From contig CAIYWI010000075.1 of NCBI GenBank assembly GCA_903929885.1, positions 1 to 64,000 of the forward strand: a stretch of 64,000 bases of DNA, in the 5' to 3' direction. Positions 55,957 through 59,460 of the stretch are shown here, piece after piece. Below the pieces are notes generated by a model. It was not told the origin of the DNA, made no database searches, and saw nothing but the letters and a program-made list of their open reading frames with translations. This DNA is from an uncultured Phycisphaerales bacterium (GTDB taxonomy: Bacteria > Planctomycetota > Phycisphaerae > Phycisphaerales > UBA1924). The position numbers were made by a program, and so were the translations under genes. Positions within the stretch are counted from its first letter, which is position 1. Every line of letters starts with the position of its first letter.

Positions 55957-56201
55957 CTCGTGCTTCCTTCCGCCAGCCACGGCCGTCGTCATGCTGGTGT
56001 CCTCACCTGAGTGGTCCAGTCTGATGCCCGAACGGAATCAGAACATTCGGCCGCCTGCGGACGGCCGTGCGCCCTAAACGATGCCTCGGTGCTGCTGCGG
56101 CGGATGATAGTGAAGCAGCGGAGCGAGGCAACGCGCCGGGCCCTGCGTTTCGCAACGGCGGTCAAAAAGATGCACCGCCGCCCCGTATGGTTGTGCCCCA
56201 T

Positions 56202-56819
56202 ATGGCCAGGACACGCATCAAGATCTGCGGCATCCGCGACGACGACGCCCTGCTGGCCGCCGCCGAAGCGGGCGTCGACGCCGTCGGATTCGTCTTCGAC
56301 GCCGCCTCCCCCCGTTATGTGGACCCCGACACCGCCTTTGCGCTGATGTCGGCCCTGCCCCCGTTCATGGCGAGCGTCGCCGTGGTTCGCGATCCCGACA
56401 TCGACGCTTTCGTCGAGATCGAGGAGACGTGTCCCACGATGTACATCCAGTTGCACGGCGCGGATCACGACAAGATCGTCAAGGCGTTGGGGCCCGACCT
56501 GTTCAAGGTCGTGGCGTCGGACTCGCCGACCTTCGCCTCGGATCTCGAGCGGTGGGAGCGGAGCGAGGATGTTCTTGCAATCTTCATCGAGTGTCAGGGG
56601 AGCCCGGTCGACTGGGAGGGCCTCGCCCGTCACACCGATCATGTCGCCAAGCCGCTGATTCTGGGCGGTGCGCTGACCGTCGCGTCGGTCGCGGATGCGA
56701 TTCGCGTCGTGCGGCCCTACGCCGTCGATGCGTCGGCGTGCGTGGAGACGTCGCCGGGCTCGATCGACGCGGCGATGGTCGAGCGATTCTGCGCCGCCGT
56801 CCGCTCGGCCGACGCCTGA
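56202..56819 (+). CDS. trpF: Phosphoribosylanthranilate isomerase
   Basis: The 205-residue TIM-barrel protein is TrpF: RIKICGIRDDDALLAAAEAGVDAVGFVF (catalytic Cys), PRYVDPDTA, IQLHGAD, PLILGGALTVASVADAI, and the C-terminal VDASACVETSPGSID with catalytic Asp. It catalyses an Amadori rearrangement in tryptophan synthesis. It stands alone, without other trp genes nearby. The ATG at 56202 fits the family N-terminus; an ATG at 56187 is possible. Its stop is 6 bp from the convergent stop of aroK. Confidence 0.93.
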   Translation: MARTRIKICGIRDDDALLAAAEAGVDAVGFVFDAASPRYVDPDTAFALMSALPPFMASVAVVRDPDIDAFVEIEETCPTMYIQLHGADHDKIVKALGPDLFKVVASDSPTFASDLERWERSEDVLAIFIECQGSPVDWEGLARHTDHVAKPLILGGALTVASVADAIRVVRPYAVDASACVETSPGSIDAAMVERFCAAVRSADA

Positions 56820-57642: not shown

Positions 57643-57675
57643 GCACGAACCTTCGAATTGTCCGAAGGTTCGTGC
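57643..57675. repeat. Perfect 13-bp inverted repeat upstream of the AbiE locus
   Basis: GCACGAACCTTCG (57643-57655) and CGAAGGTTCGTGC (57663-57675) with a 7-nt loop AATTGTC. No T-run follows on either strand. It lies about 250 bp before abiEi inside a 566-bp stretch (57357-57922) in which no gene was recognised. It may be a factor-independent structure, operator or insertion-site remnant. Confidence 0.6.
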
Positions 57676-57922: not shown

Positions 57923-58549
57923 ATGTCTCCGAGCAAGCGACACGCCCCGACCATTGTCTCAGAGAGGGCCGCCCGGATCTTCCGCGAGGCCGGCGGCACG
58001 CTGCGTGCCGTCGCTGCGCACAGGGCCGGGATCCACCCACGGGTGCTGCACGCCATGGTGAAGGCGGGGGTGATCAACCGGGTCAGCCGCGGCATCTATC
58101 AACTGGCGGATGCGTCGCTTCTCTCCGATCCCGACCTCGTTGTCGTCGCCCACAAGGCTCCGAACGCCGTCGTCTGCCTGATTTCCGCTCTGGCGTTTCA
58201 CGGCCTGACGACGCAGATTCCGCACGGGGTGGATATCGCCGTTGCGCCGGGGGCGCGCACGCCCAAGCTCGATCACCCGCCGGTCCATGTCTTCCGATTC
58301 GGAGGCAAGTCGCTGACCGAGGGCGTCGAGAAGCACATGATCGATGGCGCATCGGTGCGAGTCTTCAGCCCCGCAAAGACGGTCGCCGACTGCTTCAAGT
58401 TTCGCAATCGCGTCGGCATCGATGTGGCGGTCGAGGCTCTCCGAAACCACCTGCGCAAGCGAGGCCGGAACGTCGACGACCTGATCCGGTTCGCGGAGGT
58501 CGATCGCGTGCGGAGAATCATGATGCCCTATATCGAGGCGACGCTGTGA
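57923..58549 (+). CDS. AbiEi-family type IV antitoxin
   Basis: The 208-residue protein has an N-terminal winged-helix domain (SERAARIFREAGGTLRAVAAHRAGIHPRVLHAMVKAGVINRVSRGIYQLA). The AbiEi C-terminal domain follows (HKAPNAVVCLISALAFHGLTTQIPHGVDIAV..., VRVFSPAKTVADCFKFRNRVGIDVAVEALRNHL). It is the antitoxin/repressor of AbiE phage-abortive-infection systems, which neutralises the nucleotidyltransferase toxin indirectly. Its TGA overlaps the GTG of the toxin gene by four bases (GTGA), the usual coupling. AbiE modules are accessory and mobile; the AT-richer flank here differs from the chromosome around it. Confidence 0.9.
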   Translation: MSPSKRHAPTIVSERAARIFREAGGTLRAVAAHRAGIHPRVLHAMVKAGVINRVSRGIYQLADASLLSDPDLVVVAHKAPNAVVCLISALAFHGLTTQIPHGVDIAVAPGARTPKLDHPPVHVFRFGGKSLTEGVEKHMIDGASVRVFSPAKTVADCFKFRNRVGIDVAVEALRNHLRKRGRNVDDLIRFAEVDRVRRIMMPYIEATL

Positions 58550-59460
58550 CCAAGGGGAAACCCGCCATCATCGCGGCATCGGTCCATGCACGGCTCATGA
58601 ACATCGCCCGCGCCCAAGGGCGGTCGTTCAACGACCTGCTCCAGCTCTACGCGATGGAGCGATTCCTCCACCGACTCTCTCGTTCGTCTCACGGTTCGAG
58701 GTTCACGCTCAAGGGCGCACTCATGCTGCGGGTATGGAATCCCGCGACCTATCGCACGACGCGAGACATCGACCTGCTCGGCCGCCTGTCGAACGCGGTC
58801 GACGCGGTCGCCGAGGTGGTCCGTGACATTTGTCGCCAGGAGGTCGATCCGGACGGACTCGAGTTCGATGCGGAAACAGTGCGAGGCGAGTCCATCATCG
58901 AGGACGGCGACTACCAAGGCGTTCGCATCGGCTTCAGAGGCAGTCTCGGCGGCGCGCGTGCGGACATGCAGATCGACGTGGGCTTTGGCGACGAAGTGAC
59001 ACCCTCGCCCGCCGAGATCGAGTTTCCCGTGCTGCTCGCCAACCCTGCGCCGCGGCTCATCGGGTATCCGCCCGAGACGACCATCGCGGAGAAGTTCGAG
59101 GTCATGCTCAAACGAGGCCTGGCCAACAGCCGGATGAAGGATTTTCACGACATCTGGTGACTTTCGCGCTCGAGGGCGTTCGATGGCGGCGTGCTTGCGG
59201 CGGCCATGAAGTCGACGTGTTCCCGCCGCGGAACGGCGATCGTCGAGCGACCGACCGCGCTCACTAGGACGTTCGCCGACGACTCCTCGAAGCGGGCCCA
59301 ATGGCGAGCGTTTCGAGGGCGACTCTCGCCAACGAACTGTCCAGAGGACTTCGCGGTCGTCGTCGAGTCCATCATGGCGTTCATTCAGCCAGTCGCTGCC
59401 GCGATCGCCACGGATCGCGCCTTCACGGGCCAGTGGCAGCCTCCCGGGCCGTGGAAGTGA
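58546..59460 (+). pseudogene. AbiEii-family nucleotidyltransferase toxin, interrupted by an in-frame TGA
   Basis: From a GTG start the frame encodes SFNDLLQLYAMERFLHRL, FTLKGALMLRVW, TTRDIDLLG (the D-x-D nucleotidyltransferase site), GVRIGFRG, TTIAEKFEVML and RMKDFHDIW, then TGA at 59158-59160. The same frame continues without another stop to 59460: LSRSRAFDGGVLAAA...RRGTAI...FADDSSKRAQWRAFRGRL...FTGQWQPPGPW, which is the expected AbiEii C-terminal domain. A single nonsense codon thus splits a full-length gene of 304 codons plus stop. The truncated 204-residue product keeps all catalytic motifs but lacks about 100 C-terminal residues. Confidence 0.85.

What the first reader, a model, noticed from the sequence alone, without database searches (positions are those of the whole stretch)
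58546..59460. AbiEii toxin gene split by one TGA with the rest of the frame intact
Seen: the frame from the GTG start continues past TGA (59158-59160) for another 99 sense codons that encode the typical AbiEii C-terminal domain, with no further damage. The TGA sits just after the last catalytic motif (RMKDFHDIW). The antitoxin is intact and coupled (GTGA). Possible readings: a recent inactivating mutation (for example CGA or TTA to TGA), a tamed toxin kept with its antitoxin, or UGA readthrough. The next base is C, the leakiest context for UGA.
Basis: partly seen in the sequence, partly recalled or inferred. Interest (0 to 1): 0.62.

Follow-up and report, generated by a model that had tools for sequence, protein, structure and literature searches.

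The report
Phage-defence toxin gene with premature stop
A bacterial phage-defence toxin gene in an environmental Planctomycetota genome is cut short by one stop codon while its antitoxin is intact; this is most likely a recent, ordinary loss-of-toxin mutation of a sort found scattered over many related loci.

Summary
An AbiE type IV toxin-antitoxin operon lies at 57923-59460: abiEi is intact, and abiEii starts at GTG 58546 and is stopped by TGA at 59158-59160 (residue 205). The 99-codon remainder is in frame and is the genuine AbiEii C-terminal region (PADLOC E=5.7e-16).

The tail shows no decay. It keeps 15 of 15 strongly conserved columns, and its branch length is normal relative to the body. 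No homologue examined carries a stop at this codon; the nearest have Trp there.

Nothing supports programmed readthrough. There is no tRNA-Sec and no UCA-anticodon tRNA among 47 tRNAs, the tRNA-Trp is ordinary, RF2 is intact, and no unusual RNA structure follows the stop.

Among 111 fetched AbiE loci, broken toxins beside intact antitoxins recur. Stops lie at residues 52, 131, 139 and 219, with frameshifts near 185, each at a different place. The reverse state (broken antitoxin, intact toxin) was not seen.

Best reading: a recent nonsense mutation that removes the C-terminal helical region and inactivates the toxin. Consensus error, a functional short form and low-level readthrough are less likely and not excluded. 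Ordinary; interest about 0.17.

The parts
57923..58549 (+). abiEi, intact antitoxin/autorepressor homologue (208 aa)
   Evidence: Pfam AbiEi_4 E=8.4e-08 over cut-off; PADLOC AbiEi E=8.1e-73 over residues 14-207
58546..59160 (+). abiEii up to the premature TGA (204 aa): nucleotidyltransferase part with motifs I-IV (G57, R70, D74/D76, K183, K198-D202)
   Evidence: Pfam AbiEii E=3.6e-34; PADLOC E=2.7e-75; invariant columns; motifs as defined in PMC3985639
58546..58549 (+). GTGA overlap of the toxin start with the antitoxin stop (translational coupling inferred)
   Evidence: sequence; same overlap in the nearest relatives
59158..59160 (+). premature in-frame TGA at residue 205, inside a predicted helix (197-209)
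   Evidence: fold model; sense codon in the intact homologues aligned
59161..59460 (+). C-terminal part of abiEii, open in frame (99 codons plus the natural stop), presumably untranslated
   Evidence: PADLOC AbiEii E=5.7e-16 alone; 15 of 15 conserved columns kept

Best explanation
This is an ordinary AbiE (AbiEi/AbiEii) type IV toxin-antitoxin operon whose toxin has recently been inactivated by one nonsense mutation. Shown: one in-frame stop at residue 205, an otherwise full-length undecayed toxin frame, an intact antitoxin, and sense codons in intact relatives. Inferred: translation ends at 204 residues; the product keeps the nucleotidyltransferase motifs but loses the C-terminal helices, so it should be misfolded or inactive; the antitoxin no longer has a toxin to counter and may persist as an autorepressor. 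Loss of the toxin, unlike loss of the antitoxin, is tolerated, so this is the expected first step of decay.
For: The tail is bona fide AbiEii, and all aligned intact homologues have a sense codon at the site. Tail divergence is not raised: the tail/body branch ratio on the query tip is 1.94, against 1.63 for the whole tree, within the range of intact tips. 15 of 15 strongly conserved tail columns are kept. Neutral simulation still leaves the tail unbroken with P of about 0.04-0.10 at 0.1 substitutions per site, so a young stop needs no special cause. Independent AbiEii genes are broken elsewhere: TAG at residue 52 (L152), TGA at 131 (L180), TAG at 139 plus a second stop (L183), TAG at 219 (L048), and frameshifts in L010 and L182. 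In the survey of 111 loci the antitoxin was intact in 12 loci with a broken or partial toxin, and no locus had a broken antitoxin beside an intact toxin. The model with a sense residue at 205 has pLDDT 93 and places residue 205 inside helix 197-209, with the later helices integral to the fold.
Against: Only one genome of this species is at hand, so neither fixation of the stop nor loss of function is shown. Persistence of a perfect tail is also what occasional readthrough would give. The three other genomes of the genus (G001-G003) lack the gene, so its age here cannot be dated.
Confidence: 0.72

Rival explanations
1. Consensus error or strain mixture: the draft assembly has a wrong or minority base and the toxin is intact in most cells.
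For: The window is contig 75 of a 170-contig draft assembly. There is a single base-level lesion with no other damage, and the column is sense in all aligned intact relatives.
Against: No other sign of error in the frame. Similar single-stop AbiEii genes occur in unrelated assemblies, including one chromosome-level record (L048).
Confidence: 0.1
2. The 204-residue form is a functional product: a tamed or altered nucleotidyltransferase kept with its antitoxin.
For: All four motifs whose mutation abolishes toxicity in a studied AbiEii (PMC3985639) lie before the stop.
Against: The stop cuts a helix and removes about a third of a compact fold, including columns invariant in 38 relatives (R228, W253, W297). 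No relative ends there. The untranslated tail should decay under this reading but is undecayed, so the stop would still have to be young.
Confidence: 0.09
3. UGA readthrough by a near-cognate tRNA yields a little full-length toxin, enough to keep the tail under selection and to keep toxin dose low.
For: UGA followed by C; near-cognate tRNA-Trp is a known route of UGA readthrough in bacteria (PMC5373646) and Trp is what the nearest relatives have at this column. The tail is undecayed. In-frame stops in bacterial genes under purifying selection have been reported broadly (PMC7918605).
Against: No tRNA-Sec (where the best hit is tRNA-Ser). No UCA-anticodon tRNA among 47 tRNAs. tRNA-Trp has a 5-bp anticodon stem, A9 and G24, not the suppressor types. 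RF2 is intact. No unusual downstream RNA structure (z=0.89). No other locus has a stop at this codon, so there is no conserved recoding site.
Confidence: 0.08

Closest known systems
AbiE type IV toxin-antitoxin system (AbiEi/AbiEii; PMC3985639)
   Same: Two-gene operon with overlapping genes; AbiEi homologue over its full length; AbiEii with motifs I-IV and a C-terminal region
   Different: The toxin is stopped at residue 205 of 304; neither toxicity nor antitoxicity has been tested
Nonsense-interrupted bacterial genes as surveyed in PMC7918605
   Same: A single in-frame stop with flanking sequence still looking constrained; [quoted passage not shown]
   Different: Here no second strain shares the stop, so short persistence cannot be tested directly
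Broken AbiEii genes next to intact AbiEi in other genomes (L048, L152, L180, L183, L010, L182; this work)
   Same: Toxin frame broken by one or two stops or a frameshift, antitoxin complete
   Different: The lesions lie at other positions (residues 52, 131, 139, 219; around 185 for the frameshifts)

Membership tests
AbiEii nucleotidyltransferase toxin (PF08843) | Profile match over the curated cut-off | tested here: met
   151.7 bits against cut-off 22.5 with the stop read through; 119 bits for the part before the stop alone
AbiEii nucleotidyltransferase toxin (PF08843) | Motifs I/II (hG[G/S]x15DhD), III and IV (+DxxD) | tested here: met
   G57, R70, D74/D76, K183 and K198-D202 present (definitions PMC3985639). 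Position 58 is Ala, a variant that PMC3985639 reports in some homologues
AbiEii nucleotidyltransferase toxin (PF08843) | Continuous frame through the C-terminal helical region | tested here: not met
   TGA at residue 205; hence a broken AbiEii gene, not an intact member
AbiE type IV toxin-antitoxin operon | Intact AbiEi upstream, overlapping the toxin gene | tested here: met
   (E=8.1e-73); overlap GTGA, conserved in relatives
AbiE type IV toxin-antitoxin operon | Toxin inhibits growth and antitoxin relieves it without binding it | not testable with these tools
   Needs bench assay
UGA recoding (selenocysteine, suppressor tRNA, or code change) | tRNA able to read UGA (tRNA-Sec, UCA anticodon, or suppressor-type tRNA-Trp) | tested here: not met
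   47 tRNAs, none with UCA; no tRNA-Sec; tRNA-Trp CCA with 5-bp anticodon stem, A9, G24; the assembly is 94.6% complete
UGA recoding (selenocysteine, suppressor tRNA, or code change) | Stop conserved at the same codon in relatives | tested here: not met
   No other locus has a stop at this column

The most novel reading that the evidence does not exclude
The UGA is read through at low frequency, inserting Trp as in the nearest relatives, so that the cell makes mostly inert 204-residue AbiEii and a small regulated amount of full-length toxin: a stop codon used to set toxin dose in a type IV toxin-antitoxin system.
Probability: 0.06. Interest if true: 0.5.

Novelty: new member of a known kind. 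Interest (0 to 1): 0.17.

Why it matters
It matters little by itself. It adds one example to a pattern seen here in Planctomycetota and other phyla: AbiEii toxins are repeatedly broken while the antitoxin stays whole. That pattern means AbiE operons counted by domain search overstate the number of working systems. If readthrough were shown, it would be a new way of setting toxin dose.

Tried and rejected
Codon-usage scan for other interrupted frames: the first self-trained model converged on a poor solution and was discarded. A second, trained on neighbouring genes (one of which, 56130-56817, was read out of frame with three stops, so the training is impure), gave no clear signal at 59158 and is not relied on. 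Selenocysteine: rejected; the only RF01852 hit over cut-off is a tRNA-Ser with UGA anticodon. Structured stimulator after the stop: not found (z=0.89). Split toxin made as two proteins: considered because L010 and L182 also split near residue 185, but those are frameshifts, L015 is a lone fragment beside a transposase-like ORF, and no relative shows a conserved split point. Same-site neighbour comparison for an empty site: thrC is found in two genomes of the genus, but shikimate kinase and trpF were not found beside it in the stretches fetched, so the site cannot be compared. Closer relatives in phage, plasmid and viral collections: plasmid and phage hits are all below 60% identity; one viral contig at 66% (L185).

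Full report
Observation. The sequence at 58546-59460 reads as described: GTG start, TGA at 59158-59160, then 99 sense codons to a TGA at 59458-59460. The antitoxin gene abiEi (57923-58549) is intact and its stop overlaps the toxin start in GTGA. The window is contig 75 of a 170-contig, 3.56 Mb assembly (94.6% complete), and this is its only AbiEii. The named loci nearest to it are Phycisphaerales assemblies, so the organism is probably an environmental planctomycete-type bacterium.

Is it more than chance? An open stretch of 99 codons after a stop is common here: 17.6% of stops in the six frames of the window. The tail's homology is what counts. Alone it matches the C-terminal end of the AbiEii profiles (PADLOC E=5.7e-16, profile positions 206-298 of 299; Pfam E=0.008), continuing where the part before the stop ends (profile position 203).

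State of the tail. Full-length homologues at 66-67% identity were found in four genomes of the same taxonomic family, and many more at 40-60% in other taxa. In all intact relatives aligned the stop's column holds a sense residue; it is Trp in the five nearest (L063, L064, L003, L065, L017) and variable elsewhere (Thr, Leu, Ala, Met, Val, Ile, Phe). On a fixed tree the query's tip is 0.214 long for the body and 0.416 for the tail, a ratio of 1.94 against 1.63 for the whole tree and a broad range among intact tips. Pairwise, the query is as far from the outgroup L017 in the tail (47% identity) as the intact relatives are (48-53%). It keeps 54 of 54 body columns and 15 of 15 tail columns that are at least 85% conserved. 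In a neutral simulation of the tail the chance of no further stop or frameshift falls to 0.04-0.10 at 0.1 substitutions per site and to 0.01-0.04 at 0.15. The stop is therefore either young on that scale or the tail is still selected; one genome cannot tell these apart.

What the stop does. A model of the frame with a residue at 205 is confident (pLDDT 93.2, pTM 0.90) and puts residue 205 inside helix 197-209, with helices 214-228, 247-258 and 269-288 beyond it. Motifs I-IV, each needed for toxicity in a studied AbiEii (PMC3985639), all lie before the stop, while R228, W253 and W297, invariant in 38 relatives, lie after it. Loss of the C-terminal region therefore probably destroys the fold; that step is inferred. 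By fold the model is a nucleotidyltransferase: the best PDB matches are H. pylori nucleotidyltransferase-like proteins (JHP933 and another; E about 5e-05 to 8e-05, TM 0.44-0.52 by the model's length), and by sequence profile the AbiGII entry 9hlo (E=3.7e-55).

Readthrough. The RF01852 search gave only tRNA-Ser and other ordinary tRNAs. The 47 tRNAs found hold no UCA anticodon. The single tRNA-Trp (CCA) has a five-pair anticodon stem, A9 and G24, that is, none of the features linked to UGA reading in PMC13092985. RF2 is intact. The 80 bases after the stop fold no better than shuffles (z=0.89). Basal near-cognate reading of UGA by tRNA-Trp or tRNA-Cys occurs in E. coli (PMC5373646) and cannot be excluded here. 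That UGA followed by C is the leakiest context is general knowledge about E. coli and was not tested.

A wider pattern. Other AbiEii genes are broken at other places while AbiEi stays whole: L152 (TAG at residue 52), L180 (TGA at 131), L183 (TAG at 139 and a second stop), L048 (TAG at 219), and frameshifts in L010 and L182 near residue 185. In an automatic survey of 111 fetched loci, 86 had both genes intact. Twelve had an intact antitoxin with a toxin that was stopped (7, the query included), frameshifted (4) or partial (1). No locus had a broken antitoxin beside an intact toxin; in four with an intact toxin an antitoxin was simply not found. The automatic 'stop' calls for L037 and L052 may be natural C-termini and were not checked, and the sample is not random (best matches per genome). 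The direction agrees with toxin-antitoxin logic: toxin loss is tolerated, antitoxin loss is not.

Verdict. A recent nonsense inactivation of an ordinary AbiE toxin is the best account (0.72). Consensus error (0.10), a functional short form (0.09) and readthrough (0.08) remain. PMC7918605 finds in-frame stops widespread in bacterial genes, mostly short-lived and enriched in the mobilome, which fits. The finding is ordinary.

Noticed in passing
L010 1149-2046 (G014:C108): AbiEii split by a frameshift near residue 185 while the AbiEi next to it is complete.
   Followed up: partly
L015 1501-1842 (G023:C22): A lone C-terminal AbiEii fragment (residues 191-304) next to a 385-aa transposase/integrase-like ORF; the same genome holds an intact copy elsewhere.
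   Followed up: partly
L017 42-938 and 2492-3388: Two AbiEii copies with equal match scores on a 4,090-base contig; tandem duplication or assembly artefact.
   Followed up: no
L184 / L026 1517-2933: A second, degenerate AbiE copy lacking about 33 toxin residues (138-170) beside an intact operon.
   Followed up: partly
L185 5001-5915 (IMGVR_UViG_3300033048_000147): A viral-collection contig carries an AbiEii 66% identical to this one (over residues 1-204), with a full 304-aa frame overlapping an upstream 208-aa ORF; AbiE may travel on phages or prophages in this group.
   Followed up: no
window 57643-57675: Perfect 13-base inverted repeat with a 7-base loop about 250 bases upstream of abiEi; role unknown.
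   Followed up: no
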